A stretch of DNA of 64,000 bases from Mesodorylaimus sp. YZB2_4. Its lineage: Eukaryota > Nematoda > Enoplea > Dorylaimida > Dorylaimidae. Positions 9,146 to 56,329 of this stretch are shown piece after piece. The translations under genes and the position numbers were made by a program. Location of the stretch: the NCBI GenBank assembly GCA_030248295.1, contig JASANH010000949.1, positions 42,727 to 106,726 of the forward strand. The letters are read 5' to 3'. The stretch's first letter is position 1. The number at the start of each line of letters is the position of its first letter. The notes under the pieces are model-generated. The model was given only the letters and a program-made list of their open reading frames with translations, was not told the DNA's origin and did no database searches.

Positions 9146-9254
9146 AAAAGGTCAAGTTGACTCAGAATTGAATGCTAAACACAATGGTATGAAACTCTAA
9201 TAATACGAATGTAGCCGAGTTCAGATTATCTATCGTCCTCGCTTCAGAATCCTT

Positions 9255-9410
9255 GCTTATCACTAGTTATCGCCGTCATCACCAAACTGTCATCATCCTA
9301 ATCTCAATGACGGCCAAGTTTCTTGGACTACCTGCATGAACCGAATAGATCATTCACGTTGCTTCCTCCATCATCCGTCCCACGATCAGAGCTAGCTGAA
9401 CACTATGTCC
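9255..9410 (-). pseudogene. Decayed copy A of the SLRPSLRL-amide peptide gene (last coding part)
   Basis: This segment is recognisably homologous to 37,741-37,880. The conserved pieces are the tail-encoding end, AGTTTCTTGGACTACCTGC and the stretch encoding GGSNV-DLFGS. On the minus strand it carries a stop in place of the residue before SKK and a frameshift through the peptide core, so no amidated peptide could be made. It lies beyond the 3' end of transporter copy 2, the same relative place as copies B and C. Confidence 0.75.
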
Positions 9411-9734
9411 TAGCGACACACGTACTGTACACTGTGCGTATGAAAAATTGGGTTTACGGACATTTCGACCCCAGTTTTTCGCCCCCGCTGTTCCACCCCT
9501 GACCTATCCGCCCCACGGCAGAGAAGTACTGCATGGCAACACAGTATATACGAGTGCGGGACAAAGCGCTTGTATGAGTGTGATGGTCTTTCAATGAATC
9601 TTCTTTCAGAAACAATGCAACGACATTAGCTTGGTTGCTCTAGAATTTCGTATCTCGGATTGTAGACGGGCTTCTAAAAAGGCGAGGCTGCTCGTGAGAT
9701 CAGAAAGCGTTAGTGGCTGCCAACGGATCAGACC

Positions 9735-9900
9735 GGGGTCGTAGCTTAGCGGTTTAAGGCGTCTGCCTTTCACGCTTGGTGCGCACTTAGAGGGGAGGGT
9801 TCGACTCCCGCCTCGATACAAAATGATTGTCAAATATGTGTTCCTTAGCCCTCGAGTGCGCCTTATGTGCTTGTCTTTGGATACAGTATGACATGACATG
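9735..9900 (+). repeat. tRNA-derived SINE, full-length copy
   Basis: The head looks like a tRNA gene: an A-box-like TAGCTTAGCGGTTTAAGG, then a B box GGTTCGACTCCCG near 9,799. The body holds CCTCGAGTGCGCCTTATG and the tail is ATGACATGACATGTC. The acceptor-stem ends do not pair well, so this is a retroposon head and not a functional tRNA. Related copies lie near 12,400, 22,610, 24,070, 33,150, 48,640 and 56,330. Confidence 0.75.
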
Positions 9901-10647
9901 TCAATTGATAACTATCCTCGAGGCGTGGGGTTAATCATTCCTTTCGGGTAATCATCATATCATCCACCGTCTCTGCCCCTATTGTTGTCTTGGAAAGCTG
10001 TGACCCGTTTGGTCTCAGCTTTCCAAGCTCGTTTGTGGGATTGCTCGTGGGATGGCTCGTGGGATGGCTCGTGGGATTGCTCGTGGGATGGCTCGTCAGT
10101 CATGGCCGCTCGCTCTTTCACATTGTTGACCACTCTAATCGCTTCAGGTTTGGCAGCTAGCGCGGTATGAATGTGATTAGACTATCTTGACGACTTCTCG
10201 ATCGATACTCGCCGCTTACACGCTAGCTTTAAGCGATGATCGCAATCAAATCTGTGATCGTCGGCAGCGCGAAAGTGATTTTAGACTATACCCTCCCGCA
10301 GCAACCAGAAAAATGAGCGAAACCATGGACTTGCAAAGATCACATGTAGACGGCGAGGATAGATCCAGAAGTCGTCAAAAGTCAAGGCGGGGGCGAAGAG
10401 TCCGAATGCCGAAAAGGTGATCCAGTAGTTCTCATCTTACCCTACTCTTGCAGTATCCCATTGCTGTAGTCCCTCAGAAAACTCGTAGCAAATGCGTGGT
10501 CAAGTCTGGATACTGCGTATATTTCTTACGACCTTATACGTGAGCTAAAAACCAAGTCTTCTTGGGTGAGACGACAAAACGTCGATATAATCTTCGAATT
10601 TTTTTCCATAAAATTGGGCGTAGAGTATCTGCACTAAAATAACCGCG
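9901..10647. other. Spacer downstream of transporter copy 2
   Basis: Apart from the minisatellite, nothing recognisable was found. A 77-codon plus-strand frame (10,187-10,420) is rich in Arg and Ser (RSRSRQKSRRGRRVR), but it has no matching splice context and is probably chance. Confidence 0.4.
10027..10096. repeat. 12-bp minisatellite (GCTCGTGGGATG)n
   Basis: About six tandem units of GCTCGTGGGAT followed by G or T. On the plus strand they would read as repeated SWDG/SWDC, inside a 62-codon open frame that shows no other coding sign. Confidence 0.8.
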
Positions 10648-13600
10648 TCAAGGCTGCCTAACATCTTTACCATAAGCATTTTTTGAAACACCAAAATACC
10701 ATTGCTCAAATTTCTGCATCCTTATCACATACCACTTGGTTTCTGTCGAGGAAATAGGTGAGGGCGTGGAACTGCGGACGCCGAAGTATAATGCAACCAG
10801 TTGCACGATTCTTAGAGTTCCGCCTATAAGCACAGGTACAATATCTGTAAGGGCACCAGGAGACCCTCGAATGGCTCTAATCAAGACCCGCGTTGAAAAC
10901 TCATAAGCTCCTAAATTTGTTTTGAAAAGCAAGCACATCAGCTTACAAAAAAGCGTAGGCGTCGCGTTTACCACCCCCCCCCCGCATCACGGCTGCATGA
11001 AATTTTTACCTACCTACATAGGGAACATGGGCTTATTTTAAGGCACAGGCACCTCACTTACATAATCCGCATAAGGAATAAGCGAGACCGGAGGTATCGT
11101 ACAAAAGGCAGGTAGCCTTTTCAGAGCATATTTCTTTCCACAATATGCAATTAGCGTCAAAAATTCTCCCAAATAATGGGGCTCCTGGCAGCCAGCCTGA
11201 AAAAATTTGAGCAAAAAATGCAATAAAATTCTCGATTATGTCTCCCCAAAGAATCTTAATGAACCATGGTGGGAAATCCCAGGTCCCACCGACAAATATG
11301 AATGGAAGTAGAAAAATAAAGCTAACATGTAAAATAAAGGGGTGGGATGGATTACAAAAAATACTTCAGCTTTTGTATCCAGGGAACAAAAGCGCTCCCA
11401 ATAACCCACATTGTGCTTACCAAACAGATCGCAAGCAACTAATTGCAATCCTAATGCCAGTGTTCGCAAATGGAATGGAACACCCCTGCAAAAATGCAAC
11501 TGTACTGTACTATCAGAAGAATAGCCCAATCGAATCTTGCTTACACTAAATTTGACTGCGTGATCATATATCCAGCAGAACTGCCCAGCAAGCAAGCAAC
11601 GGCCATCATGACACAGAACAGAAGAGGTCTCCACGGGCAGCTCGGATCACATTTACCGAACGTGAGTGCTGGATGGACTTGACTTGACGCCTGCTCGACT
11701 TGATCTCGCAGGCAAGTGCAGTTGGAGACGGATGACTGCAATGACAGGCATGGCCAAGACTGACTGCTATTCTACAGTGCTTACCCTGCATCCGGCGAAA
11801 CATGGCGAATAGTAGGTCACACCATCGGAGCTGCAGTGCGGGTCGTATATGCCTTTCGAACATTGACAGTCCTCGTTGCATGCATGGGTGAGACTCGGTG
11901 GTAGCGATAACCTACTTGAGCATCAGTAAAATTCTGCTGATCCAGTTTCAGTAATGCTTGCCTTACCTCTCGCCTTTATGATAAGGAGTACTGATGCCAG
12001 CTAATGGCAAAGTGGGGCATGGCAATAAATACGGAAAAGCAAAAATCAATCCAAAAAAAGTTGAAAAATAAGCTAAGACGTAAATTCCCCGTATTTGCAA
12101 ATTGAATCGACTGGCGATCGCTCCACCCAACAATGTGCCTATTATACCAGGTAACAAGCCGACGGCACCTGCAACAGAGACCAGTTTCTTCACCCTCAGT
12201 CTTTCACTTTTGATCCGGAAGGAAGTGGCAAATATACGATTAGGATTAGTCATGGCCTTGGACTCAAAATTGAGTTGCAACAAAGTACAAAATCTGGCGG
12301 CTTGAATCGCAATATGAACATAGGCTCCATACAGGCAGTCCTTAGAAACCTACTGTATATGCGGTGTGATGCACTTCCAATATAGAGCCTAAGCTTTTGA
12401 GTGCACCTTATGGTGCTTGGCTATGGATAAAGTATGACCTGACATAAACTTGTGGGGATAAGCATTCTGTAGCATTATTTAGGCCTCAATAGCCAGTATC
12501 CAGCCGTATAGTAATATTCATTGGATTAGTGAAATTTTGTTTTAAAAAAGTTGACGCATGGTTCATCAGAAAACAGCGCCAAATACATACAGTATACTAA
12601 CTGTATGTTATTAGACAATGTAAATACTTATATTATACTGTATTTTCTTCAACAGAGTATATTCATGTGTTTAAATGCGCACATGGCTTAATATTTTACG
12701 TTTTTTCAAAAGTATATTTTCCCTCAATTTTTGAATTTGAGCTGGTATCGAGTCAGAAATTTTGCAGCTCCTTCGTTTTTCTTGTGTATTGTACAAGCCC
12801 TATGATCCGGTCATGTACACAGAAGACACAACTACATACAGAACAGGTTAAAGTCATATCCGTTAGTGTTCCAAAAACCTGAGTCTCTGCTGTCTGACCT
12901 GATCCTGACCTTGACCAGCCCATTTTTTACAGGCCCCGACCCTAACAATGACCACAGGTCAAAAAATTCTCTGACTTTACTTGACCTTTATCAGGATATG
13001 AAAAATTTGTGACCTTGACCATGCTTCTGGTGCATAAAGCACTCATACAGTAAGCAGTGAGTCACTGCAGAATGCAAAATGTTGAAAAGCCTGAAAAACC
13101 AATTCGTTGCAGCGTGACGGAAGAGCCCCCTGGTTTTGGTATTCGAAGTGAGACTGGTAGGATAGGTGCGTGCGTGCATGAGTGGAGAATATGCCGCACG
13201 GTGGTCTATGATTGCGAAGTATAAGAGTGGCCCGAATGATTTAGTACAGTACTCAATGCCCGCTTATTATTATTATTATTAAAGCAGCAGTCATGGCAGC
13301 AGCAATCATTCTCTTAACCAGGCCGTAAGTCTATCATTGAAATCGCCTCTGGAATCTAAAATCTAAAAATCATTCAGCATTTACTGTAAGGGCGAAGTCA
13401 GGTAAAAAGGTTGGGTTCAGGGACATTTATCGTCTAGCCTATGCAGCCCTTAGCGGCCAGGAATCATGCACAGTCATATGTTCTTGCAGTATTGCAGGAA
13501 GGGTTATTTTGCAAAGTGGAGATCATTAGTCGAGAGGTCTTTCTGTTGCGGTCACTTTTAAATACTCTTACAGTATACCCCCGCCATGCTTTTGGCGATA

Positions 13601-16600
13601 TAGAAAACCAAAAGGAGGCAAGAAGAAAAGAAGACATCAAAACATTGCCTAAGGAGGGTGAAATTCAGACCCGCTAAAAACTCATAATATTATTCAGAGT
13701 ACAGCATACATATCACAAAAATTTTCCGGTACAGCAACAATTTAAAATTTGTAGCAACTTAAGATAGATCTGGTTGGTTCTAGGACGAGAGAGAGAAAAT
13801 ATTTTAAGAAAACTAAGGGAACAGAAAATTAATTTTAGTATATTCAAACGCTGATCTTGAGTTTAGGTCAGAAAATGCTCTGACCGCCAACAAAACTTGA
13901 CCTTGAGTCAGTCAAACAAGAGTCAGTCAAACAGGGTTTCGACAGATTTCTGACCTTGACCTTGAGGTCATTTTTAACCTTATATCTGATCTGCATGATC
14001 TACAATTCCCCTTACCTGGTAATACAACCGAAATTTCAGTCGAAAATCCGTATTGACTTTCCAAAAACTTGGGAAGGAACATGATAAAACCAGACATCAT
14101 TAGAACCTCGATAGACTGACGAATGGTTCCGCATATGAAAATGGGAGTGCGTAATATAACCTGTAAAACCTCCCAGTAACTCTTTGTTTGTTCAACCTGG
14201 CTGTTGTCTTACCATGATTGAATTATACATTTCTTTTATGGCCGCTTTCTTTCCGTTAGAAGAAGAAAGCTTTCCCAATTTTTGTTCTGCGTCTTTTTTA
14301 GCCGATCTTAAATGGCTGGCAATTGAATGAGGTTTTCCCAAGTCTTTTTTGGCTGCAATATGAGATTGATCGCTCATCAATCCAGCAAGTTGTCATAGAA
14401 AGCCACTCACAAGCGGGCATTCGTTTTGGGAATCCACTGAAGGGTATGGTGATAACAGCGACTGATACAGCTATAATGAGATCAGCCAGCCACCACGCCC
14501 CGATCCAGTTTGCATCGCCAGGTTTCACACCAAGTCTAAACATACGTCAACCCGTTGTGTGTGTGTGTCAACAAGCAAGCAGAGACTGACTTTGATACGT
14601 CCAGACGATCGAAGTCTTCGTGTAGTCTGAGGGTGAATCCCGCCAGAACCACAGCCACCGCAAGCGACAAGCCTTGCGCTGCCAGAAGGATTCCTAAAAC
14701 ACAATAAGCTTAATTGACTTTTACTGTACTATAGGAAAATGCTGACATTTCAAAAATATGAGCGCAAGAGTCAGGCGAAAAGGGAAGTTTCGGTTTTTCA
14801 ATTTTTTTAGCTTTTTCATACTTTTGCTGTACTTTTTTCAATCTTATTTTCTTCCTTCGAAATATCTGCCATCTGCTAACTAAAATCTATCCTAATTTAC
14901 TTGTAAAATAAAAATATCTTACCAGTATAGAGCATGGAAGAGCTACGTTCAACATTCTCATCAACGTAAGATATACTCGTCGTTCCATGAGTGACTGAGC
15001 CGATAGATCCAAGTATACAAGCCATACATCCGATATACCATGCAATATCGCTGTTGCGGCTCGATTTTTCGCCAATCATGCATTCGACGTCCTGTTGGAC
15101 TTGACCACCTGCTTGCATTTCTTTTTTTACGGCAACAGTTATAAAGGGTGTCCAAGAAAATTACCTGTTTTACACATCGAATCGACGATGGAAGCATTCG
15201 ACATGCGTTCGTTGTTGATTGACATGACTTCGGTGCGAGGCGAAGCGTATCGGTTCGTTATTCCCACTATATGCGAGCCAATCATAAAAAATGAGGCACC
15301 CACAATCCATCGAACTTTGTTTCCTAAAAACAGATTCTACGGGCCCAAATGCTTTAGTTTACTGAGTTAATTTATTCAATTTTAAGCGCGACTTTCGTTG
15401 AAACCATGCAGAAAAGGTCCTGCTGATCAGCGCATCTGGGTTTCCTACTAAGTTTTGCTGTTTCAGGTTGCGCATGTTTTTTACGTCATATGTATCAAAG
15501 TCCCGGAGGGACAGGGACCAGAAATGGTTTTAGATCTAGCAGGTCTGCATCAGGTTTTATTCCAGTAATACTGGTCCTCTACGACCTTTTTTGTGCGACC
15601 TTGCAGCTTTTGGTATGCGTATAAGTGATTGTATATCAATATAAGGAGGAGCATTATCTTGCGAGAGATACTGTGCAAAGTTGTGTTAGCTCGCGCGAAG
15701 ACACTACAATTAGCGTTGGTTAACTTCACCAACTGACGATGACTGTTCTTTCTGTATTCAAGCGACTTCATCCATATCAAAGACCCGGCAGTGGTCTTCG
15801 ACCATATGGATGAAGTCGCTCGAATATGGTCAGTGGCGAGCAATAAATTGTTTGTGTGAGGTGACGATGAAGAAGGAGTTGATACCTTATCTGCACCTAT
15901 CAGCTCACTGGTTCAGGGAACCGCCCGCCTCTCTTAATCGTAAGTCAGTATGCGCGGCTGGCAGAGCCACTTGCACCAAACGGCCGCGTACAAACCCAAT
16001 GAAAACAGATAATAAGTGATGCCCCTCTTGATCAGACTATGATAGACTATGATAAACTTAACCCTTAGTTGGTCGAACTCTTGGGTCCACAGACCCAACG
16101 CATGTTATAACACATGGCGAAACGGTTTTATCTGCATATCTCGACAACCAGCCATTATTTTGCAAAACCGTTTGGTAGTATCATAGGTTGATAGGTAGGA
16201 CATGCTAGTACCAAAAATTATCGAAATCGATCAAGCGGTTCTCAAACTGCAGCCCGAAAACCCCAAAAAAGTGCCCCAAAACAATAATAACTTCGATTGA
16301 AACATGAATCGTACGAGAAGAAGAACTATCTTCTAGCACAGGCATCGTACAGTTGCTACTTGATGCTGCAAACAGTGAGACCAACTAGGGGTTAACCCTT
16401 CCCCGGTCAAACTTGCGGACCCGTATTCTCCAGTGCGGGGTCCACACTTCAGAAGTCGTTTTTGATCGATATCTCCCGAACCGATCAAAATTTCGCGAAA
16501 TCCCATCGTAGGGTTCTCGGGTGCCATGTCCCGCATGCTTGGGTCGAATTTCATCAAAATCCGTCGAGCGGTGCCCGAATGGCGCCGAAAAAACCTTCCC

Positions 16601-17641
16601 GGAACTATATAGACCTCGTTTGTAACGTAAAGTACCGTAGTTCTGTAGAGCCGCGAGAACTATCTTCTAGCACAGGTAGCGTACAGTAGCTACTTGATGT
16701 TACTTACAGTTTGACCAGGGAAGGGAACAGAGGAAATTTGGTTCAGTTCGACCAGTTTTAGTCAGTCTGGTGTGGGTTTGGAAAGGAAAGGGTTCAGTGC
16801 AAAAAATCGGGTTGTCAATGCCGGTATAGCGTGGTAAAATAAAGTTTTAGCTCAGGTAGGCACATGAATAGACTACGTCGGAAGCACACTGCGCAAGGCA
16901 GCTACATAACCAAAGCAGACTGTGAAAGGCTTACCTCTATCACTGTGGTATGAGGCAATCAGCATTGCGAATAATCCAACTACGCTTGCAGGCATCTGAA
17001 CAAATTTAATAAGGCAGTTTTCTTATTTCCAGCCGAATGCATAGTTGACTTACACCAACAGTACCCATTTCAGTGGAAGTCAGATGAAAACGTCGTTCGT
17101 ATGTTTGGATCATCACTGCTGCAAGGTTGACAGATGTCATCAGTAGCAATAGACTTGATAGTGTAACCAGCCAGAATGGGGTGTTCAGAAATTGTAACCA
17201 GTCGGGTCGAAATCTAAAACATCGCCCGTGCTAGCGCATGCTAGAACCCGCCGCATTAGGAAACACACGTAATCTTCTCGCTGAGAAGTCGTAAGCACAA
17301 AGCTAAAAGTTTTTTAAAGTCTTCATCGACTTATCGTTTGTAGAAATCTGCAGCGGATGCCTTCTTTTGTGTCTCATGGTTGGAACAGAGATTACGAATT
17401 ACGACTGAAGCTTTCTGTTTCTGAAGCCTAGGGTCCCCAAAATACTGTACTGTACAGTAATTTAAGGAATTTAAGGAGCATCATACCTTCCCCAACCATA
17501 TCTTGAATAGAAATCTGCTTCCCTGGCACTTTCCTCTGATATTTCATCGTCGCTGTCACTGTCTTTTATGCTCCTGTCGTGCATATTATGGTGCAATAGA
17601 GCCACTCGATCGTCATCGTTATCGATCACTTCTTCTCCCAT
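10648..17641 (-). CDS. OATP/SLCO-type organic anion transporter, copy 2
   Basis: A complete 15-exon gene reading 709 residues: 17487-17641, 17054-17213, 16935-16995, 15165-15323, 14923-15108, 14591-14693, 14411-14535, 14213-14352, 14016-14160, 11967-12168, 11785-11911, 11545-11735, 11421-11485, 11062-11196, 10648-10823. All phases agree and the stop is at 10,648. Residues 1-52 form an acidic cytosolic N-tail ending YSRYGWGR. The first helices follow (NTPFWLV, YERRFHLTS), then GNKVRWI of the MFS loop. The OATP signature region at 282-291 reads DANWIGAWWL. A charged cytosolic segment spans 317-363. The large extracellular loop has a Kazal domain with cysteines at about 490, 494, 496, 505, 516 and 520, followed by more paired cysteines. 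Late OATP motifs are LRTLALGLQLV (exon 13) and FGRIFDANCILW (exon 14). The role is uptake or efflux of organic anions at the plasma membrane; the substrate is unknown. Confidence 0.93.
12395..12455 (+). repeat. SINE 3' fragment
   Basis: TTTTGAGTGCACCTTATGGT, GGCTATGGATAAAGTATGAC and CTGACAT match the body and tail of the tRNA-derived SINE at 9,735-9,900. The tRNA-like head is missing. It lies in the long intron 9 of transporter copy 2. Confidence 0.6.
12885..13990. repeat. Pair of TGACC-rich arrays in intron 9 of copy 2
   Basis: Near 12,890-12,990 and again near 13,860-13,980 the sequence is packed with TGACCTTGA-like words, such as CTGACCTTGACC and TTGACCTTGAGGTC. Two arrays of one short motif about 0.9 kb apart resemble subterminal repeats of a hAT-like element, as at 43.1 and 44.2 kb. 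Clear terminal inverted repeats or a target duplication were not found, so the assignment is tentative. A short ATT run lies at 13,264-13,280. Confidence 0.4.
16062..16391. mobile_element. piggyBac-like MITE, family a
   Basis: A 330-bp non-coding element flanked on both sides by TTAA (16,058-16,061 and 16,392-16,395), the piggyBac target duplication. The ends are inverted: CCCTTAGTTGGTC on the left and GACCAACTAGGGG on the right. It carries no transposase. It lies in intron 3 of transporter copy 2. Another copy, decayed, lies at 3,966-4,300. Confidence 0.8.
16396..16725. mobile_element. piggyBac-like MITE, family b, abutting family a
   Basis: It begins directly after the TTAA that ends the neighbouring MITE. 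Inverted ends are CCCTTCCCCGGTCAAAC and GTTTGACCAGGGAAGGG. The right flank reads AACA instead of TTAA, so one site has mutated. The interior shares long blocks with 5,961-6,386, including GATCGATATCTCCC and AAATTTCGCGAAATCCCATCG. Confidence 0.7.
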
Positions 17642-17860
17642 TGTCGTACGCTGATAATATTACAGCTTCCCTCCTTTCGAAACAATATCAAGAAATGCAG
17701 GATTCGAATTTGGTGCAGAAAACACTACGGATGCTCAGCACAGCCTTCAGAACAAAACGACTGGCTGTGAGATTGAGGATGCACGTCCGACGAGTCGCAT
17801 TGGACGTGCATACAGAACAGGTTTCTTACTCGAGCCGAAATTTAGTCCATATGTAGTTAG
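17642..17860 (-). promoter_or_regulatory. Conserved upstream region of transporter copy 2
   Basis: This block is similar in copies 2, 3 and 4, immediately upstream of the ATG. Shared words are TAATATTACAGCTTCCCTC close to the start and CAGAACAAA, GACTGGC and ATGC further out. Because it is retained in all three young copies, it probably holds the core promoter and 5' untranslated leader. No clear TATA element was singled out. Confidence 0.4.
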
Positions 17861-18474
17861 AGTCCATTGACGTCTCAGAACTTACCGCTTTGCTCCACGG
17901 AAGGATCAATTTCACCAGCAAACGTCGTGATGATATGCCGCAAAACACCCTTTTTGCCATTGCATTTACTCAGAGAATACGCACTTTTCTCTTATGTTCG
18001 AACCAAAAATTTGCACAACGTATATCAATTTTGCTGATGTGAAGTGATGATTGTTTTCGCATGCAGCGAGTTTGTCAGCGGCACGCAAGGCCGCACTGCA
18101 AAATACTATATTAAACTTTTAGGTTCTGTAATGTGCAGACAAATAAATTTACACCACATCAATGCTACTGTATATGCAAAAATATATGTAAGTTTGAGCA
18201 CAATCAAGGATAAAAGACTGTCTAGTGAAGTTAAAACTAGAGACATACTGGGTGTTGATTGAAGTCTCCAGTTTTAAAGCATGCTGTTGATAAATCAGAG
18301 GCTCTGATAAATCAAGTATGCTGAAAAAGAGCATGCGCGCGTGAATAGTTGACTCTTCACAAAAAAATTTATTAGTGCATTTGGTTTTTTGGTTTTCCAA
18401 GCGTCTAATCTGCTTACTGTTATTCTGATAAAGAAACAAAAAATACAGCACAGCATATCCTAGTCATGGCTTAC

Positions 18475-18645
18475 CTATCAGCTCATCACTCGTTATCACC
18501 GTCATCACCAAATTGTCGTTTTCATGATCTCAACGACGGCCGCAAAGATTTCTTGGACTGCCCGGCTCAACCGAATAAATCACTTCCACCAACGTTGCTT
18601 CCGCCTTCATCAGTCGCATGATCAGAGCAATAGCTGGCACCTCAC
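18475..18645 (-). pseudogene. Decayed copy B of the SLRPSLRL-amide peptide gene
   Basis: The best preserved of three remnants. Read on the minus strand, it still encodes GSDLFG, QSKKSLRPSLR, then KRQFGDDGDNE and a stop. A stop replaces the Ser after LFG, the terminal Leu codon is TCA instead of TTA, and the Gly needed for amidation is TGA. The amidation site is therefore lost. It lies about 240 bp beyond the stop of transporter copy 3. Confidence 0.85.
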
Positions 18646-18884
18646 GCGACACATACACTCCTGTGTGAGTATTTGTAGTTAGGGAAAATTAGTCATTTTT
18701 CAGGCTCCTCATGATGACAGTTTATCCCTAACCGTAGTACCTTAGAAGATCTCTGCGTAGCAGATGCGATACTTGAGATATTGCAAGGCCTGATACATGA
18801 TTCATACCATTTACTAAGCAGCCCATTTTTATTGTTAACGGAGCTCTCTGTCCATTCTAATTTTCCTAGCATGAGAGCATCATT

Positions 18885-28462: not shown

Positions 28463-28760
28463 TGTCAAACACTGGTAATATTACAGCTTCCCTTCTTCCC
28501 AATCGATATCGAGAAAGTACAGGTTTCGAGTTCAGTACAGAAAACACTTTGGATGTTCGATGCAACCTCCAGAACAAACTGACTGGCCCCAGTGAGGCTG
28601 AGAGTAAATGTGCGACGCACAGGAAGGCAGAACAGGTTTCTAAGTCGAGACGAAATGTAGTCCGTATTTGGAGTCCTGGAACTTGACTGCTTCACTACGC
28701 CTATGAAGGTCTTGTTACATGGGCAGACGTCGTATACAACGACGCTGAACACCACTTTGC
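28463..28760 (-). promoter_or_regulatory. Conserved upstream region of transporter copy 3
   Basis: Closely similar to the block upstream of copy 4 and recognisable upstream of copy 2. It starts with GTAATATTACAGCTTCCCT next to the ATG and continues with AAACACTTTGGATGTTCGAT and AACAAACTGACTGGCCCC. Candidate promoter and leader. Confidence 0.4.
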
Positions 28761-29889
28761 CAGCATTTACCTGCCGTTTAATAAAATCTATCCATTGTAC
28801 ATTTTTTCATAGCAGAATTTAAACTGAAAGTTTATACCCTGATTTGCTTGATTTGCAGGTTGATCTGTTCCTGTCTGGTGGTTCGAATGCGGTTGTCTAG
28901 CGTAATGAGAAAAGTTTCAAAATCAAGTAGTGCTGAGGCCATGTATTGCTGGATGTCGCTGATTGTGTTATTCGGCAGAAAGCGAATGTGAGATGAATAT
29001 TTGTGGTTTAAAAGGAGCTGTATATCTCACATTCATATCGCATTGTTAAAGTCTTTTTCCTTTTTTTTAAATTTTTGTGGGATGGGCCCCGTGCTGCCCC
29101 AGTTCCCCACGGGACTTCCAACCCGTTTTTGCTTATAACCGGCCAGCAGTCTCGATATGATAAGCGAGGCCGTGGGGTGACCAGCTCTCGCGGCAGCTTC
29201 CCTCTGTGTGTCACATCTAGGAGCACCTCCACACGAGGGCATTCTGTGCCAGCACCAGCGTCCCAGGATGATACTAGGCGAGAAGGGAGGGCCCCTCCGG
29301 ACTGGTGTTCGAGGACCAGTTTCTTGATTCTCTACTCGTTAGGCGTCCCCCACTTGACAGTACCGATCACAGCCAGGCTTGCAAGGCGAGCGACCGACTT
29401 ATTAAATGCTGTCGAAGACCGGTTCCCACTCTGAGAACAGGCTTACTAACGATAAGCCGGAACAGAACTGCGGCCTCCCGGTCAGGGTATCGGTAAATTC
29501 TTGAAAATTTTTTAAATAGGTTGTTTGAATTTCTCTCATACTTTCCAGCAAATTCTGGCGACTCTCGGCGCAGTCACGATATCAATCCGCTCAATTATCA
29601 GGCTATCCATAAATTTCCAAGTAGGGATTGTGATGGCCGATTAACTTGTTGTTCCATCCTCCCACAGAGTTGTTGGTTCTACGCAGTACATCCAGCATGG
29701 AGATGTGTAACACCTCCAAATTTGATGCGCAAATAAAGGAGAACATCTGATTTTCAACATCTTGGAAATAAGCGATAAAAGGTTGTGCCTCAATAGGGCT
29801 GTGCATCAGTGCTATCAGTAATGAGCAACTACTGTAATTCTGATTTAGAAAACATGAATATACCACAGCTCATATCCTCATCTTGGCTA
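28761..29889. other. Spacer between copies 3 and 4
   Basis: Contains a GC-richer stretch at about 29,075-29,480 with open frames on both strands but no recognised domain, perhaps an unclassified repeat. The segment 29,815-29,890 (CTACTGTAATTCTGATTTAG, CATATCCTCATC) matches sequence next to the intact peptide gene at 37,665-37,740 and belongs to the duplicated unit. Confidence 0.4.
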
Positions 29890-29970
29890 ACACTTGTTAT
29901 CACCATCATCACCAAACTGTCGTTTTCCTTAAATCTTCATGAAATGGCTGTAAAGACTTCTTGGACTGCC
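29890..29970 (-). pseudogene. Decayed copy C of the SLRPSLRL-amide peptide gene (shortest)
   Basis: It keeps TTATCACCATCATCACCAAA, CTGTCGTTTTCCT and CTTCTTGGACTGCCTGCG from the last coding part. On the minus strand it reads RQSKKSLQPF and then loses frame. Everything upstream of the SKK region is deleted up to a point also present at 18,768 (GATACTTGAGATATTGCAAG). It lies about 110 bp beyond the stop of transporter copy 4. Confidence 0.75.
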
Positions 29971-30081
29971 TGCGATACTTGAGATATTGCAAGGTCTTTC
30001 TTATAGAGTCTACTGTACCGTTTGCTAAAAACCCCTTAGTTGACCTCTTTATCGATTTAAATTTTCTGGCATAAAACCATT

Positions 30082-33000
30082 TCAAGGTTGCATAACATCC
30101 GTGTCACATGCAGTTTTTGACACACCAAAATACCACTGCTCAAATTTCTGCATCCTTATCACATACCACTTGGTTTCTGTTGGAGAAATGGGTGATGGCG
30201 GGGAGCTGCGGACGCCGAAGTATAAAGCAACCAGTTGAATAATCCTTAGAATTCCACCTGTAAGCACAAGTATTCGTGGAGACGCCAGAAATTCGATTTC
30301 ACGGGAAGCTGCTGTGTGCGCTGGTAAACACCCGAGCTTAACATTATAAGCTTGGGTGCTAGCTGCCTTTAGCAAAAACGAGCTACGGCAAAAAAACTTT
30401 AAGAAATTCCTTTTTACAAAAGACGTTTTCCAACGGCACTAGAAAAAGTATGTCTCCCACCCCACCCACAGAATCACGACGTGATGTAATATCGCAGGAA
30501 AAGTTTTTTTGAGGAATGGGCTCAAGCTTCTGTCCCACCCTCAGAGGCAAATAGCTCTCCGAATGGAATTCATCAGAAAAAAAATTTGAGCAAGAGGGGG
30601 CATCACTTACATAGTCCGCATAAGGAATAAGCGAGACCATAGGTATCGTACAAAAGGCAGGTTGCCTTTTCAGAACAGATTTCTTTCCACATTATGCAAT
30701 TAGCGTCAAAAATTCGACCGAATATTGGGGGCCCAGGCAACCAACCTGAAAAATGATTGCTCGATTTTGTCACTCCACAAGAACCTCCAATACCCATTCA
30801 AGAAATATCCCTGGGTCTGCCGCCGAATATATCAGCAACCAAAAATTGCACTTACCAAACAAATCACTAATAACTAGCTGCAATCCTAATGCCAGTGTTC
30901 GCAAATGGAATGGAACACCGCTGAAATAGTGAGCACGCATTATCCAAAGAATAGCCCAATCGAATCTTGCTTACACTAAATTTGACTGCGTGATCATATA
31001 TCCAGCAGAACTGCCCAGCAAGCAAGCCACGGCCATCATGACGCAGAACAGAAGAGGTCTCCACGGGCAGCTCGGGTCACATTTACCGAACGTGAGTGCT
31101 GGATGGACTTGACTTGACGCCTGCTCGACTTGATCTCGCAGGCAAGTGCAGTTGGAGACGGATGACTGCAATGACAGGCATGGCCAAGGCTGACTGTTAT
31201 TCTACAGTGCTTACCCTGCATCCGGCGAAACATGGCGAATAGTAGGTCACACCATCGGAGCTGCAGTACGGGTCGTATATGCCTTTCGAACATTGACAAT
31301 CCTCGTTGCATGCATGGGTGAGACTCGGTGGAGATGATATCCTAGTCGATCATATGTGAACTCGACTGTTACAGTACCTAAGTTTTTTAAATCTTACCTG
31401 TCGCCTTTGTAGTAAGGAGTACTGATGCCAGCTAATGGCAAAGTGGGACATGGATATAAATACGGAAAAGCAAAAATCAATCCAGAAAAAGTTGAAAAGT
31501 AAGCCAAGACATAAATTCCCCGTATTTGCAAATTGAATCGACTGGCGATCGTTCCACCCAGCAATGTGCCTGTTATACCAGGTAACAAGCCGACGGCACC
31601 TGCAACAGACACCAGTTTCTTTATACAGAAGCCCTATGTTCGATCAGTGCGGTGAAAATACACACGATGGAAGCGAGGATTAGGCATAGAATTGGACTAA
31701 AAATTGTCTTCATCTTTTTGGCTTAATATAGTAGATATCCCGGTAAAAGTAATATTGTCTCCATCTTTGGGTATTTAAAAACATGATGACAAAAATGAAA
31801 TGCCGACAGAGACAATACAGCTTTGAATCACACATGTATCATCATGTGTGTCCTATCCGTGTACCATTTGCTCACCTGGCAATACTGCCGACATTTCTGT
31901 GGAGAATCCATATTGACTTTCCAAAAACTTAGGAAAGAACATGATGAAACCAGACATTAATAATGCCTCGATAGACTGGCGAACGGTTCCGCATATAAAA
32001 ATCGGAGTCCGTAATATAATCTGCAAAAAACTCCCAGTAACTCTCTGTTTCTTCAACCTGGTTGTTGGCTTACCATGATTGAGTTATACATTTCTTTTAT
32101 TGCTCCTACTGTTTCCTTAGGAGAAGGCAATGCTCTCGATTTTCCTTCTGGTTCATTTTTGCCTGCTCGTGAATGGCTGGCGGTCGCATGGGATTTGCCG
32201 ACGTGTGATTTGGCTGAGATATGAGATTGATCACGCATCAATCGAGCGCGGTCAAATAAAACTCCTTACAAGTGGGCATCCGTTTTGGGAATCCACTGAA
32301 GGGTATGGTGATAACGACGATCGAGAGAGCCAATATAACATAGGCAAACCACCACGCCCCGATCCAGTTCGCATCGCCAGGTTTCACATTCAGTCTAAAC
32401 ATAATTCAACCCGTTGTGGGTGTTGTCAGTGTATCAAGTCCATCGGCTACTTTGATACGTCCAGACGATCGAAGTCTTCGTGTAGTCTGAGGGTAAATCC
32501 CGCCAGAACCACTGCCACCGCGAGCGCCAAACCTTGCGCTGCCAGAAGGATTCCTAAAACGATATAGCTTGGCAGACTATGAAATGAGTTTGCTCTTTAG
32601 TAGCGCGCCGGTGCGGTGTAAAGTGAAGCACACCATGAGATAGAGCGTCCATTTTCCATCCAATTTAAAGGCTACTTGGGGCGGCAAACACGGTGAAATT
32701 CACCACCGAGCTGTCACTCGATATCTGATGCGAAAGAATAAATCTGCGTGGTGGCATGCTCCCCGTGAACAGTCATGAGATCATCATGGATCTCTGTGTC
32801 AGCTTTCTCCTCTCATCAGATATCGAGTCGGATCGCTGCTCAGTTTCCAGGCTTCCAGGCCTTTCTCACGGCAAGCAACCTTTTTAAGAAAGCGACTGGC
32901 CAGTCACTTGGACAAGACTCATCTAAACCGCCATAGGGCCGTCAAAATGTACATCCAACCCAAAAGTGACTGACTTGACTTTACACACCACTCAGGCAAT

Positions 33001-36000
33001 ATTATAAGACCCTCATTGCCTCTAGATGAACATGAGAATCGGGCGGGAGATTCGACTTTTTTCCGCAACTTTGTTCTAACTTGTACTGCACAGAGTTGTG
33101 TTGTTTTTCGTATTATGGATGGACTGTCTCTGGTAACTGCTATAAATCAGGATGTCATGTCATACTTTATCCATAGCTGAGCACTATAGAACGCATTTTT
33201 TCGACAGTCATTGTTTACCAAGGCGGGAGTCGAGCCCTCCCCTGCAAGTGCGTGCCCAGTGTGAGAGGCAGACGCAGAGGCAGACCGCTGGTCCACAGAA
33301 CACGGGGCAAGGGTCTGATACGAACATGGAAATATAGTAAATATCTTACCAGTATAGAGCATGGAAGAGCTACGTTCAACATTTTCATCAACGTAAGATA
33401 TACTCGTCGTTCCATGCGTGACCGTGCCGATAGATGCCAGCATACCCGCCACACATGATATATACCATGCAATATCGCTGTTTCTACTCGATGTTTCGCC
33501 AATCATGCATTCGACGTCCTGTTGGACTTGGCCACCTGCTCGCACATTGTATTTAAGCCAGAAGCTATAAAAAGTGGCCGAGAAATTCACCTGGTTTACA
33601 CATCGAATCGACGCTGGAAGCATTGATCATGGGGTTATTGTTGACTGACATAACTTCGGTGCGGGGCGAGGCGTATCGATTCGTTAATCCCACCATGTAC
33701 GCAGTACTAAGGAAGAATGAGGCGGCTACAATCCATCTAACTTTGTTTCCTGAAAATGGAATGTTAGCGGTCAAATGCTTCATATTTAAGACAGACTTTC
33801 TGTAAGAATCGACTATTTGCTGGACAACCTAAAAAATAAAATTGCGATTTTTGGTGTTGAATCGATGGGGTATACCGTGTAGGTGTGCTCATTGCTATTC
33901 TTTCCGCCTGGAGCCCGCCCGTTGACTTTATATTGGGATTAGAGTGATTTTGTAAAACATGAAAATTTTTGTAAAAAGTAGGATGGGCGATATCGCCCAT
34001 ATCTGGTCAATCATTAAGCTGACTAACATTTCCTTAGCTACGCTGATAGAGAATTGAACGTAGAATCCGAATCTGGCTTTAAAATTTGTCTATCTCGAAA
34101 AGTGTTTGTGCGCTATCTAACATTTTCGCGCGAAACTCAAATTTTCGACATCTGGGTCACTTTACACTGAGCCCCGCCAAGCGAGTGCAAAGAAGAGGTC
34201 ACCTCTATATCTCTCATATATCGTACAGAATTCAATGGGCTTTCGAACGAGACCAGTCGCGCCTTTTTTTATAATGACAAAGGTGTGCTAGGGTTTCTCA
34301 AAGTTCCCCGATGACCTAGATTTTTGAGCAAAAATAGCTATTTCCCTTCTCCCTCCAAAATTGTCGAATGAGACACGTCTTTTTTCACGCCAGTCTAGTG
34401 CAGAATTCAAAGACGAGTCGAATGAGCGTACACAGAGCTTTGTAGTTTGCCGGGATCGTGAAATACACAAGAAAAAAGGACTTGGACTTGGACGAGGGCT
34501 TGGTACAAATAAGCTTTTCCTCATTCCTAGCAGTCACATGACAGTTTTGTTTAGCGCATACCTCACATTTTTATGTTGGCCCTCTCCTAATCACAGACTC
34601 TATAGACTTATCAATGCGCTATTCAAATGTAGATTCATCGACACCTTGATCAAAAATATCTGCACAGCGACTCGACGACGTTCTGAACGTTTTGCTCAAA
34701 CATGCGCTCCAGAAAGTCGTCAGAACCAATGTTATTGTCGTAACTTGGGTCCATATTATCGTCATTGGCTGCCGCCTGACTGTCAGATGCCATTGCTTCT
34801 TCACGGCTTAGTGCAAGCCTGGTCCAAAAGCTTTGAGTCTGTGCAGCTGTCTGCCAGTCCTCTTTAGAAGGGAAACAGTGGGCTGTTTCTCAGGAGCTTG
34901 GCGACGTCTTTGGGCTCATTTCCTTGCGCCTGTAATGCCTTCGTTGAACTTCTCCAACAGATACTGTTTCTGGGCTTCAGTAAAGCGCTTCACTTGTTTC
35001 CTATCTTTCAGAGCTCAGCCTAGCTCTAATGGATGAATAGCATCCATGGTTGAATCCTCTGCTCGCTGGCTTTTTAGCGCTATGAATACACTGGATGCAC
35101 TGGAAAATAGCTGGGCTCTTTCGACATTGCTTACACAGCTCTTAATGCTGTAGTCCCTCAAATGCTGCCGCTCTGCTTGCTTTGTGTGTTTCCCAATGCT
35201 CACGTGCTTCCACCAATCGTGACCACGTGCTTTCTAGTGATTCTGAAGTTCGAGCTTATTATTCAGCCAAGCAACTTGAGTGATAGCCCGCAGCTTGCCC
35301 TAAATGGGAAGCGCAGTTGTGCGGTTACATATAATTGCAGGTTAAGTGAATGGACTATGTTGGAAGCACATTATGCGAGGCAACAACTACAAAGACACCC
35401 CCCCTTTGAAACACTCACCTTTATCACTGAAGTATGAGGCAATTAACATTGCGAATAATGTGGCTACGGTTCCAGGAATCTAAACGTGTTGCTATACTGC
35501 AGCTATAGCTATGCTATGTTGCTATACTGTTGCATTATTGATATTCGCACATATATTACGTATTTTACTTACAGTAGCAGAAGCCATTTTAGAGGAGGTC
35601 AGATGGAAACGTCGTTCAATAGTTTGGGTCATCACTGCTCCAAGGTTGACAGATGTCATCAGCAGCAACAAACTTGACAGTGTAACCAGCCAGAAGGGGG
35701 TGTTCAGGAATTGCAAGCAGTCGGGTCGAAATCTAAAACATGGTCAATCATAAAATAAATCCGACTATACCCGTATTAGAAAATGAGTCGATAGTCTTCC
35801 TGGGTTTGCTCCACCGCTAGTGAGCAACGGATGCTTTTGTTGTCCGTATATAACAGAAAGGGGATTCCAGTTTCCTACCTTCCCCAACCATATCTTGAAT
35901 AGAAATCTGCTTTTCTGGCAGTTTCCTCCGACATTTCATTATCGCTATCACTTTCGTTTATGCTCCCGTCATCCTGATGATCAGTTAATAGAGCCACTCG

Positions 36001-36033
36001 ATCGTCATCATTATCGATCACTTCTTCGCCCAT
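30082..36033 (-). CDS. OATP/SLCO-type organic anion transporter, copy 4
   Basis: The most compact complete copy: 35879-36033, 35573-35732, 35419-35479, 33591-33749, 33350-33535, 32451-32553, 32270-32394, 32074-32213, 31876-32020, 31398-31599, 31215-31341, 30975-31165, 30856-30920, 30611-30745, 30082-30257. Exon lengths equal those of copies 2 and 3 throughout, giving 709 residues from the ATG at 36,033 (MGEEVIDNDDDR) to the TGA at 30,082. The OATP signature region reads DANWIGAWWFA. The Kazal exon has all its cysteines (CSKGIYDPYC, DGVTYYSPC). Exon 8, in the cytosolic loop after helix 6, is identical in protein sequence to copy 3 and very different from copy 2. Exons 10 and 11 are the ones that differ from copies 2 and 3. 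Expected location is the plasma membrane; substrate unknown. Confidence 0.93.
33150..33310 (-). repeat. tRNA-derived SINE in intron 5 of copy 4
   Basis: Tail GATGTCATGTCATACTTTAT, then GAGCACTATAGAACGCA, then a head whose complement contains GGGCTCGACTCCCGCC. It has the same orientation and intron as the SINE at 24,070-24,262, just 3' of exon 5, and there is none at this place in copy 2. Confidence 0.7.
34650..35205 (-). pseudogene. Degenerate zinc-finger-associated ORF in intron 3 of copy 4
   Basis: On the minus strand, pieces of one protein can be read in changing frames: GKHTKQAERQHLRDYSIKS, then QVKRFTEAQKQYLLEKFNEG, then NEPKDVAKLLRN, then SKEDWQTAAQTQSFWTRLAL and NDDNMDPSYDNN, ending at a stop at 34,650. 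The order (a GKH segment, then FT-EQK-L-EKF, then LTAQQI-SFWSRL-like) resembles C2H2-finger proteins that are widespread in invertebrate genomes and often tied to transposons; that resemblance is from memory. Several frameshifts and a stop after EKFNEGITGARK show it is dead. Matching introns of copies 2 and 3 lack it. Confidence 0.5.
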
Positions 36034-36380
36034 TGTCAAACACTGGTAATATTACAGCTTCCCTCCTTCCCAATCAATATCGGGAAAATACAGGTCGAGT
36101 TAAGTACAGGAAACACTTTGGATGTTCGATACAACCTCCAGAACAAACTGACTGGCCCCTGTGAGGTTGAGAATAAACGCCCGACGCACGGGAAAGAAGA
36201 GCAGGTTTCTTAGTCGAGACGAAATATAGTCCATATTCAGAGTACATTCACATCCTGGAACTTGACTATGTAATTCACTCCGCCGAAGAAGGCCTTGTTT
36301 TACTGGCAGACGTCGTATACAATGATGCTGAATACCTTTTTCGCAAGCACCTACCTGCCGTTTAATAGAATCTGTTTTTT
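36034..36380 (-). promoter_or_regulatory. Conserved upstream region of transporter copy 4
   Basis: Shares a long stretch with 28,463-28,760, including GGTAATATTACAGCTTCCCT beside the ATG, AAACACTTTGGATGTTCGAT and CAGAACAAACTGACTGGCCC. Candidate promoter and leader. Confidence 0.4.
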
Positions 36381-36419
36381 TCACTGTAGAATTTGAAGTA
36401 AAAGTTTGCACATACAGTA

Positions 36420-37741
36420 TATCCTACTTTGCTGATTTGCAGGTTGATCTGTCACTTGTACCTTATACACATCTGCATCGCTTTTTCCTATATATACAGT
36501 GTTATGTACCTCCTGCTGCTACAACAGAGACTCATCAGCAGGTTTCGATGCGAGTGGACACTTTTCGAACTAAGCTTTGAGGAATTTTTGGTGATATTAC
36601 TGTTGGTGTCAATGAAAATCGTTATGGATAGTGGCACATTTTTAACGGTCGTCTTATAAATTTCTTAAAATGACGTGATACAGTAATAATGGACATCTAA
36701 TTTTTCTGTGGAAGGGCATAGTTTAACTAATCACGTTTACCGCGCCATTCATCCAGCCAACAAAGTATTATTATTTTCTCTTCTGACGCGTCTTTTCCAT
36801 CTAAGCCATCGAGGTATCTTATTAATATAAAAATGGTGTTAGGACACATCAATCATATTTTTATGAGCTGTGACGGTGAGAAATCGGAAGCAAAAAACAC
36901 CTTTGAGGACATATGCAAAAAGGTCTTCACATAGAAAAATAGAGTGCATTTGTTTTGTGGTTTGCGAAATCTGATCCTCTTATCTCGAATCACATGCTTT
37001 TTTAATCAGGAGGTAAAATCCATTACATAAAATGATTATTCACTTATAACGCCAGTATTCCCATAAAAATCTACAGTACTACTGCAATTCTGACTTGAAA
37101 AGTTCGAATATGGCCGGTACATATCTGCATCCTAAGTTAGCTATACTGGTTCAGTGAGCTTTCGTCTTTCATGATAATTATTTTGTACTTGTTGCTGTTA
37201 CAATAGCCGCTTATAAGCAGCTCCTGATGCTTTATTAAACTTGGGGTTTATTTGATTCTGAATGCCATTATCATTAGTTGTGACAATGACAGTATTTTTG
37301 GCGGTCCTCTCAGAAATCTACAGTGTAAGAATGAAGCTTATTACAGAGAGCCGGGTAAACCAAGTGTTCTGGTCTCTTTTACGCCTGCTGCTTTTACTAG
37401 CCAACGAGATACCTCATGCATGTGACGACAGAGATCCTTTTGCTCAGCATGTGTTGATGAGAAATCAGAAGCTGCGTGAAATTATGCGAAAAAAGTGTGT
37501 GTGTGGGTGTGTTTGTGCATTGTTAGTTTTTCACAAAAAAATGGTGAGTTTTGTGGTGTTCGAAGTCTGATCCTGCTGCCCCGACTTTGCTATGTTTAAT
37601 CAGGCAGTCAAATCCATTACATAAAATGATCAGTCACTGATAACACCAGTGTTCCCATAAGAATCTACTACTGTTATTCTGATTTAGAAAGTACGAATAT
37701 AGCCCAGCATATCCTCATCCTGGCTCACCTATCTTAGCTTA
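36420..37741. repeat. Two tandem copies (about 0.65 kb) of the 3' flank of the peptide gene
   Basis: The segment 36,470-37,140 recurs, diverged, at 37,170-37,740. Shared words are CCATTACATAAAATGAT, AATCTAC(A)GTACTACTGCAATTCTGA versus AATCTACTACTGTTATTCTG, and CATATCCTCATCCTGGCT. The last part of the unit is also present beside pseudogenes B and C. No coding exon was recognised; a 102-codon plus-strand frame at 37,262-37,570 has no recognisable content. Confidence 0.6.
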
Positions 37742-38053
37742 TCATTCGTTTTCACTATCGTCACCAAACTGCCGTTTTCCTAATCTCAACGACGGCCGTA
37801 GAGATTTCTTGGACTGCCTGCCTGAACCAAATAAATCACTTCCACCAACGTTGCTTCCGCCATCATCGGCGACGTCGTCAGTTGCTATCGGACTGTTACG
37901 CCATATGCCAGGGATGAACTTGGTTTTCCAGCTTTGATGCCCATAGAAATTTGAAATTCGGCCACCGTCGATTTGCCCCTCGGCCACGTTGCATGTGGAC
38001 ATGAGAAACACGACGGAGAGAACAGCGAGGAGAGCGCGTTTTGTGCAGTGCAT
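37742..38053 (-). CDS. Secreted neuropeptide-type precursor with one SLRPSLRL-amide
   Basis: A 103-residue precursor. The start chosen is the ATG at 38,053, because the sequence just upstream (CCATTCCAG) is a good 3' splice site and the frame from this ATG opens with a signal peptide, MHCTKRALLAVLSVVFLMST. The frame also extends 22 codons upstream to an ATG at 38,119. Residues 84-91, SLRPSLRL, follow a Lys-Lys site (82-83) and precede Gly-Lys-Arg (92-94), the classic site for cleavage and C-terminal amidation. An acidic tail QFGDDSENE ends the protein. The PSLRL core recalls arthropod short neuropeptide F, which normally ends PSLRLRF-amide, but the final RF is missing. An sNPF-like peptide or a distinct family are both possible. 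It would act as a secreted ligand for a receptor. Three decayed copies of this gene lie beside transporter copies 2-4. Confidence 0.8.
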   Translation of the reverse strand: MHCTKRALLAVLSVVFLMSTCNVAEGQIDGGRISNFYGHQSWKTKFIPGIWRNSPIATDDVADDGGSNVGGSDLFGSGRQSKKSLRPSLRLGKRQFGDDSENE

Positions 38054-47129: not shown

Positions 47130-47370
47130 TATTTAAAAAATTTTGGACAGTGAAATTTTTTAAAATTCTGTCAAACAAACCACATCCCGCTCTGCATACT
47201 ATGCTATACTCAAGTATCGCGTTTAAATTTTTAAAAACGCGCGAATTATTGGAGTTGAAAATCCGCGGGCCTTTATTGCCAACCTTGTACTTGCAACATG
47301 ATTGTACTGGCCTCAGTGAAACCGGGCTCAGCAGCCATTTAGGACCCTCAAGATACTTGCGAAACCGAAC

Positions 47371-56145: not shown

Positions 56146-56329
56146 TCATAACGTTGCGTGTAAGACTTCTTAATCTACAGTATATATTTTTCGTTCGATG
56201 TTGAAAACTGTAGATAGTACGGATATTGTGTGTGTTCACAGCATGTGTATCGTGCTCAGCACACAACGTTAAAATTTGTATTTATCCGTCATGTGGTGGT
56301 TTGCTCAATGGAAATCAGCTTTTCAAGTG

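What the first reader, a model, noticed from the sequence alone, without database searches (positions are those of the whole stretch)
9255..38053. Peptide gene and transporter duplicated together; the peptide copies then died
Three remnants (9,255; 18,475; 29,890) of the last coding part of the amidated-peptide gene lie just beyond the 3' ends of transporter copies 2, 3 and 4. The intact gene lies beside the start of copy 4. The ancestral unit therefore was peptide gene plus OATP gene, amplified at least three times. All OATP copies kept open frames, while each extra peptide copy lost its amidation Gly or its frame by a different lesion. This contrast suggests dosage constraint on the peptide and gain from extra transporters.
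Basis: partly seen in the sequence, partly recalled or inferred. Interest (0 to 1): 0.75.

Follow-up and report, generated by a model that had tools for sequence, protein, structure and literature searches.

The report
Stillborn peptide-gene fragments between duplicated transporters
In a roundworm genome, a transporter gene was copied in tandem and each copy carries a broken-off tail of the neighbouring peptide gene; the tails look like scraps that were never working genes, so they do not show that extra peptide doses were harmful.

Summary
The three remnants are real, far beyond chance, on the same strand as the intact peptide gene (CDS 38053-37742, -), at 9.3, 18.5 and 29.9 kb between OATP genes. 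All four OATP copies are open 15-exon models of 709-720 aa; copies 2-4 show pairwise dN/dS 0.22-0.30. None of the three remnants has the first ~57-62 of 103 codons (start, signal peptide). The two longer ones stop matching at the same base of the intact gene (37867) and share the same foreign 5' flank: one shared truncation, not three deaths. Remnant changes are flat over codon positions (12/11/13); the intact gene's private changes are 2/0/5. Stops and frameshifts are later decay. OATP1 is far older (about 50% aa identity), so the recent amplification holds three transporters and four peptide pieces. This n+1 count fits unequal crossing-over between the peptide gene and a truncated copy downstream of the transporter. 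Co-duplication is supported; dosage constraint on the peptide is not. Unexplained: on R1 and R2 the block changed less than its 3' flank.

The parts
37742..38053 (-). Intact peptide gene (INT): 103-aa precursor with hydrophobic N-terminal leader, KK-SLRPSLRLG-KR (predicted SLRPSLRL-amide) and short tail
   Evidence: single ORF; no Pfam family above cut-off; INT-private changes 2/0/5 at codon positions 1/2/3
37868..38053 (-). 5' part of the INT coding sequence (start codon, leader) not found in any of the three remnants; amino-acid similarity fades between 37867 and 37885
29828..29973 (-). Remnant R3: peptide 3' coding part plus 3' flank; 4-nt insertion, deeper 5' truncation joined to the OATP4 3' flank
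18407..18626 (-). Remnant R2: 126 nt of coding part without indel, two TGA stops (one at the amidation Gly), plus 3' flank
9204..9393 (-). Remnant R1: 6-nt and 4-nt deletions, stops, KR site lost, PSLRLG kept
18612..18672 (-). 5' flank of R2 shared with R1 and absent from INT (duplication seam)
   Evidence: R1-R2 alignment score 19, 0 of 2000 shuffles; R2-INT not above shuffles
9376..9441 (-). 5' flank of R1 shared with R2 (duplication seam)
   Evidence: E 2e-5
30082..36033 (-). OATP copy 4, 15 exons, 709 aa, open
18885..28462 (-). OATP copy 3, 15 exons of the same lengths, 709 aa, open
10648..17641 (-). OATP copy 2, 15 exons of the same lengths, 709 aa, open
1..6862 (-). OATP copy 1, exons 1-14 (exon 15 at -512 to -708 in the script's numbering left of the window, in locus L011), 720 aa, open, about 50% identical to copies 2-4: an older paralogue
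9450..10380 (.). Dispersed repeat inserted between OATP copy 2 and R1 (with a nested high-copy repeat at 9731-9903); without it R1 and R2 have a similar layout
8011..9194 (.). Dispersed mariner-like repeat (about 1.2 kb) ending next to the 3' edge of R1
   Evidence: the name mariner is by eye, its ORFs gave no Pfam match
18278..18414 (-). 3' flank of R2, homologous to the INT 3' flank 37446-37577
   Evidence: E 2e-6
36952..37133 (-). Extra copy of the INT 3' flank (37548-37721) in the INT-OATP4 spacer, no coding part
   Evidence: 77%, E 2e-32

Best explanation
This is a tandem OATP array whose seams carry a 5'-truncated fragment of the neighbouring peptide gene. An event placed the 3' part of the peptide gene (from about codon 57-62 on, plus 3' flank) just downstream of the transporter, between it and the older OATP1. 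Unequal crossing-over between the intact peptide gene upstream and this fragment downstream then multiplied the transporter. The result is three recent transporters (copies 2-4) and four peptide pieces: one intact gene at the outer end and three start-less fragments. The fragments never encoded a secreted peptide as separate copies; their stop codons and frameshifts are later decay. The transporters were kept open by purifying selection and partly homogenised by gene conversion. Shown: truncation, shared junction of R1 and R2, flat codon pattern, n+1 count, open OATPs, conversion-like tracts. Inferred: order of events and crossing-over as the motor.
For: R1 and R2 stop matching INT at the same base 37867. 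R1 and R2 share a 5' flank (score 19, 0/2000 shuffles), while R1-INT and R2-INT there are at shuffle level (1084/2000 and 1748/2000). Once the 9450-10380 repeat is set aside, the OATP2 3' flank (10454-10496) weakly matches the OATP3 3' flank (18723-18768, E 0.003), so the seams have a similar layout. R2's 3' flank and OATP2's 5' flank match INT's 3' flank (37446-37577) and OATP4's 5' flank (36298-36448), as a hybrid seam predicts. OATP1 is old (350-357 of 698 aa identical to copies 2-4; third-position identity 0.38-0.39), whereas R1 next to it is young (INT-R1 and R1-R2 each 99 of 116), so R1 belongs to the recent amplification. Codon positions 1/2/3: INT-private 2/0/5, remnant changes 12/11/13; remnant-remnant differences R1-R2 9/6/6, R1-R3 7/7/7, R2-R3 5/6/7. 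dN/dS 0.22-0.30 for copies 2-4. Runs of agreement between O2-O3 and O3-O4 exceed all 5000 permutations; O2-O4 does not.
Against: Numbers are small: INT third-position 6/7 versus R1+R2 6/21 gives Fisher p 0.023, but the four-sequence tally gives p 0.11. Sites where INT differs from all remnants cannot be polarised without an outgroup, so a coding phase of the remnants' common ancestor is not excluded. Pure neutrality of the block is doubtful: private changes on R1 are 14/116 in the coding block and 14/48 in the 3' flank (p 0.012), on R2 7/116 and 8/48 (p 0.040), together p 0.001; R3 shows no such contrast (11/81 and 3/36, p 0.55), nor does the R1-R2 block against the 5' flank (17/116 and 11/58, p 0.51). 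Gene conversion with INT, misalignment of the gappy flank, or non-coding constraint could cause it. R3 lacks the shared 5' flank, so only two of three seams show it. The fragment's original 3' breakpoint may be hidden by the 8011-9194 repeat. The seam flanks find no match left of OATP1's 3' end (best E 0.85), so the first breakpoint is unseen. The gene models rest on no transcripts.
Confidence: 0.69

Rival explanations
1. One reading: a complete peptide gene plus OATP unit was amplified, and each extra peptide copy was lost separately because peptide dosage is constrained.
For: Each remnant bears different stop or frame lesions; the OATPs stayed open.
Against: No remnant has the 5' half; R1 and R2 share the same truncation base and the same flank; remnant changes show no third-position bias.
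Confidence: 0.08
2. One complete extra peptide copy existed for a while, lost its 5' half once by deletion, and this truncated form was then amplified with OATP.
For: Sites where INT differs from all remnants are third-position biased (2/0/5) and could lie partly on the remnants' common branch.
Against: Not needed by the data; no trace of the 5' half found at the seams.
Confidence: 0.15
3. The old unit was peptide+OATP including OATP1, and R1 is as old as OATP1 but was kept similar to the other pieces by gene conversion.
For: R1 sits upstream of OATP1 on the same strand, as INT does of OATP4; conversion-like tracts exist in the array.
Against: The R1-OATP1 spacer shows no match to the INT-OATP4 spacer and only E 0.56, inside the repeat, to the R2-OATP2 spacer (not compared with OATP3's); third positions are near saturation; R1 also shares its 5' flank with R2.
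Confidence: 0.15
4. The fragments are retained as non-coding elements (for example promoter or transcript-end signals of the OATP genes).
For: On R1 and R2 the coding-derived block changed less than its 3' flank (21/232 against 22/96, p 0.001) without codon-position bias; R2 has no indel in 126 nt.
Against: No contrast for R3 (p 0.55) or against the 5' flank (p 0.51); block against both flanks together p 0.063; R1 and R3 have indels and R3 lost about a third of the block. Conversion with INT would look the same.
Confidence: 0.09

Closest known systems
Partial gene duplicates of nematodes (Katju review, PMC3449122; passages seen: 40% complete duplicates in C. elegans against 82% in yeast)
   Same: DNA-level duplication whose breakpoint falls inside a gene, leaving a truncated copy
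   Different: Here the fragment recurs at three seams and sits beside a functional amplified gene of another family
Tandem arrays made by unequal crossing-over between flanking repeats (established mechanism, recalled)
   Same: n units with n+1 copies of the flanking repeat; hybrid seams
   Different: The flanking repeat is inferred to be a gene and its own fragment, not a transposon
Interlocus gene conversion among Caenorhabditis paralogues (PMC3966223; abstract and section list seen)
   Same: Patchy identity among paralogues
   Different: Different genes and species
OATP/SLCO organic anion transporters (PF03137; SLCO2A1 structures such as 9qzo)
   Same: Near whole-length match, Kazal-like loop
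   Different: Nematode paralogues; substrate unknown
Arthropod short neuropeptide F (SGRSPSLRLRFa in Tenebrio; start of abstract seen in the listing, PMC7441091)
   Same: Shares the five residues PSLRL
   Different: Ends RL-amide, not RLRF-amide; a short match that is only a lead

Membership tests
OATP (PF03137) | Match to the family profile over its full length | tested here: met
   O1-O4 E 5.7e-94 to 5.9e-109, profile positions 6-9 to 543 of 545
OATP (PF03137) | Kazal-like cysteine loop | tested here: met
   PF07648 in O2 and O4 and in an O1 exon ORF; whole O1 and O3 gave no hit at E 0.001, though both have the cysteines by eye
OATP (PF03137) | Transport of organic anions | not testable with these tools
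   needs an uptake assay
Amidated neuropeptide precursor (INT) | Signal peptide, dibasic sites and Gly donor | tested here: met
   read by eye from MHCTKRALLAVLSVVFLMSTCNVAEG...KK-SLRPSLRLG-KR; no signal-peptide predictor was run
Amidated neuropeptide precursor (INT) | Peptide present in tissue, receptor known | not testable with these tools
   no expression or peptidomic data
Complete duplicate of the peptide gene (remnants) | Start codon and signal peptide present or traceable | tested here: not met
   0 of 3 remnants
Pseudogene that was once a live separate copy (remnants) | Third-position bias of changes on the remnant's own branch | tested here: not met
   12/11/13; small sample
Partial, start-less duplicate (remnants) | Common breakpoint inside the source gene with a foreign flank | tested here: met
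   R1 and R2, 2 of 3; R3 is cut 46 nt deeper

The most novel reading that the evidence does not exclude
The peptide fragments are not mere scraps: they persist at every seam because they serve as recombination hot spots or non-coding control elements that keep this OATP array expanding and converting, so that a peptide gene's tail became the amplification handle of a transporter. The slower change of the block than of its 3' flank on R1 and R2 leaves this open.
Probability: 0.1. Interest if true: 0.55.

Novelty: new member of a known kind. Interest (0 to 1): 0.27.

Why it matters
It is a clear case in which pseudogene remnants beside a preserved gene family suggest a dosage story, while the breakpoints and codon positions point to fragments that were dead at birth. 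The array also shows how a gene and its own truncated copy can act as the repeats for unequal crossing-over. It sits in a genome with many OATP-profile matches, which may be the more fruitful subject.

Tried and rejected
A hidden 5' half in R1 was considered: a local alignment of 9420-9585 with the INT 5' coding part scored 21, reached by 3 of 500 shuffles. It was rejected because most of that stretch (from 9450 on) belongs to a dispersed repeat found on other contigs.

An ancestral intron boundary at the R1/R2 junction was considered and rejected by eye: no AG directly precedes the block in either remnant.

Constraint on the remnant block was tested with mixed results: R1-R2 block against both flanks p 0.063, against the 3' flank p 0.01, against the 5' flank p 0.51. 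The odds of the non-coding reading were raised a little for this. A seam match to the outer flank of OATP1 was sought: best E 0.85. A further peptide piece in the 19.8 kb left of the window was sought: none at E 0.1.

In print: 'PSLRLG' gave 0 papers; 'PSLRL' and related terms gave 36 papers, 15 listed, the neuropeptide papers among the listed being on arthropods by title; Pristionchus+neuropeptide+amidated+nlp gave 0; a looser form gave 253, 12 listed, none opened; OATP/nematode/family-expansion terms gave 2 papers and OATP/C. elegans terms 508, 10 listed, none of the listed seen to treat this. A first search on tardigrade peptides was a wrong guess at the lineage. One search (duplication breakpoints) gave nothing used; led to the two papers.

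The first set of splice anchors failed for 13 of 45 exons and gave wrong joins; it was corrected from the sequence.

Species: nematode by 133 Col_cuticle_N matches; a diplogastrid was only a guess, and one GH5 match does not settle it.
Full report
Setting. The window is the right end of contig C300 (42727-106726) of a 145-Mb genome in 1067 contigs. It is a nematode: the cuticle-collagen N domain gives 133 matches, and rings in 0 of the 14 control genomes. The species is not known. The peptide pieces and the four transporters lie on the minus strand, read from high to low coordinates.

The observation. The intact peptide gene (INT) is one open frame, 38053-37742, 103 aa, with a hydrophobic leader and one predicted amidated peptide, KK-SLRPSLRLG-KR. 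It matches no Pfam family above cut-off. Its 3' part recurs at 18407-18611 (R2), 9204-9375 (R1) and 29828-29973 (R3), E 2e-58 to 3e-23; none of 1000 shuffles per remnant came near the observed scores. A genome search with the INT DNA lists 3 matches, all on this contig (itself, R2 and R3; R1 not listed).

The transporters. I built gene models from conserved splice sites, without transcripts. O2, O3 and O4 each have 15 exons of the same 15 lengths and an open frame of 709 codons. O1 has 15 exons, 720 codons, one apparent GC-AG intron, and its last exon left of the window. All four match PF03137 over almost the whole profile (E 5.7e-94 to 5.9e-109); the best solved-structure match of O4 is SLCO2A1 (E 3e-63). 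Pairwise dN/dS: O2-O3 0.30, O2-O4 0.26, O3-O4 0.22, with dS 0.28, 0.34, 0.18. Synonymous divergence is patchy: exons 10-12 O2-O3 0.00-0.04, exons 6 and 8 O3-O4 0.00, elsewhere up to 0.56. Runs of agreeing variable sites for O2-O3 (15) and O3-O4 (43) were reached in 0 of 5000 permutations each; that of O2-O4 (4) in 832 of 5000. Gene conversion is the likely cause. O1 is another matter: 350-357 of 698 aa identical and third-position identity 0.38-0.39 with copies 2-4, i.e. near saturation.

What the remnants lack. BLAST of R1 and of R2 against INT ends at the same INT base, 37867, in mid coding sequence; translated similarity fades by 37885. Upstream of that base R1 and R2 resemble each other (alignment score 19 against a shuffle mean of 5.1, 0 of 2000) but not INT (1084 and 1748 of 2000 shuffles score as high). 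Beyond this flank lies the OATP 3' flank, weakly shared between O2 and O3 (10454-10496 with 18723-18768, E 0.003) and clearly between O3 and O4 (18765-19086 with 29971-30283, last exon included). The additional kilobase at R1 is a dispersed repeat, 9450-10380. R3 is cut 46 nt deeper and joined directly to the O4 3' flank. So 0 of 3 remnants hold the start codon and leader, and 2 of 3 show one common seam; the third appears to have lost it by a further deletion.

When did they die? If each copy had lived before dying, changes on its own branch should first have favoured third positions. They do not. Counting columns with at least two remnants, changes on remnants are 12/11/13 at positions 1/2/3, while sites where INT alone differs are 2/0/5. 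In the INT-R1-R2 comparison, 6 of 7 INT-private coding changes are at third positions (binomial p 0.007) against 6 of 21 for R1+R2 (p 0.75); Fisher p 0.023. The four-sequence Fisher test is p 0.11. Remnant-to-remnant differences are flat (9/6/6, 7/7/7, 5/6/7). The sample is small and unpolarised, but it points the same way as the anatomy: the fragments were without a start before they multiplied.

How the array arose. R1 lies between O2 and the old O1 but is as close to INT and R2 (99 of 116 coding-part sites each) as young pieces should be, so it belongs to the recent amplification. That amplification thus has three transporters and four peptide pieces. A simple tandem duplication starting inside the peptide gene would give as many pieces as transporters. 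One more is expected if a fragment already lay downstream of the transporter and crossing-over between gene and fragment multiplied what lies between. Such seams should have the fragment's 5' flank and the gene's 3' flank. R2 does: its 5' flank is R1's, its 3' flank matches INT's at 37446-37577 (E 2e-6), and O2's 5' flank matches O4's at 36298-36448 (E 6e-9). R3's 3' flank is INT-like as far as 29828; beyond that only a weak match (E 0.28) until O3's 5' flank, which matches O4's (E 6e-31). R1's 3' side is interrupted by the 8011-9194 repeat. I hold the shared truncation as well supported, the crossing-over motor as the likeliest of several.

Against this reading. On R1 and R2 the coding-derived block changed less than its 3' flank: private changes 14/116 against 14/48 and 7/116 against 8/48, together p 0.001; R3 shows no such contrast (11/81 against 3/36, p 0.55), nor does the R1-R2 block against the 5' flank (17/116 against 11/58, p 0.51), and against both flanks together p is 0.063. 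One INT-R1 alignment hinted at a 5' half (3 of 500 shuffles), but most of that stretch lies in the repeat. A once-live common ancestor of the fragments is not excluded. No relative's genome was available to me, so order and direction of events are inferred.

Comparison. Partial duplicates are common in nematodes (40% of C. elegans duplicates complete against 82% in yeast; passages of PMC3449122), and gene conversion among Caenorhabditis paralogues has been reviewed (abstract of PMC3966223). The finding is a tidy new case of a known kind. The dosage inference should be dropped; the statement that extra transporters were kept stands.

Context. OATP-profile matches number 114 on 33 contigs, 36 places when joined within 20 kb. 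Some may be other MFS proteins: the same profile also rang in 9 of 14 microbial controls, over the cut-off in 3. ORFs in several of the 12 loci that I printed carry the OATP-type cysteine loop (by eye). That C. elegans has only a few OATPs is recalled, not tested.

Noticed in passing
whole genome (G000): OATP family looks large: 114 exon-level PF03137 matches on 33 contigs, 36 places at 20-kb joining; some may be other MFS proteins.
   Followed up: partly
49399-49842 (-): Second neuropeptide-like ORF: hydrophobic leader and ...TRLREPIRFGKR..., FLP-2-like from memory; no Pfam match.
   Followed up: no
60673-61893 (-): 406-aa single open frame that looks by eye like a seven-helix receptor; no Pfam match at E 1, only weak PDB matches, among them delta-opioid receptor (E 0.39).
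   Followed up: partly
11403-12192 with 19765-20550: 95% identical tract between OATP copies 2 and 3 (exons 10-12 pS 0-0.04 against 0.14-0.46 in the other 12 exons): recent gene conversion is likely.
   Followed up: yes
9204-9393 and 18407-18626: In R1 and R2 the coding-derived block changed less than its 3' flank (together p 0.001) without codon-position bias; unexplained, not seen for R3.
   Followed up: partly
36952-37133: Second copy of the peptide gene's 3' flank (37548-37721), 77%, in the spacer before OATP4; no coding part.
   Followed up: partly
9731-9903: Nested short high-copy repeat: 36 of the 49 listed genome matches of the 9400-10640 query, 91-93% identical (lower bound).
   Followed up: no
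47306-47881: Tandem array with 64-base period; three copies 98% like the reference copy.
   Followed up: no
22628-22713 and 56328-56413: 86-nt inverted repeat, 94% complementary, 33.6 kb apart; perhaps a dispersed element.
   Followed up: no
2577-2632 (-): Intron 8 of OATP copy 1 appears to be GC-AG (GCAAGT), unlike the GT-AG intron at the same place in the models of copies 2-4.
   Followed up: no
37781-37804 (-): The predicted peptide SLRPSLRL-amide shares PSLRL with arthropod sNPF (listing); a lead only.
   Followed up: no
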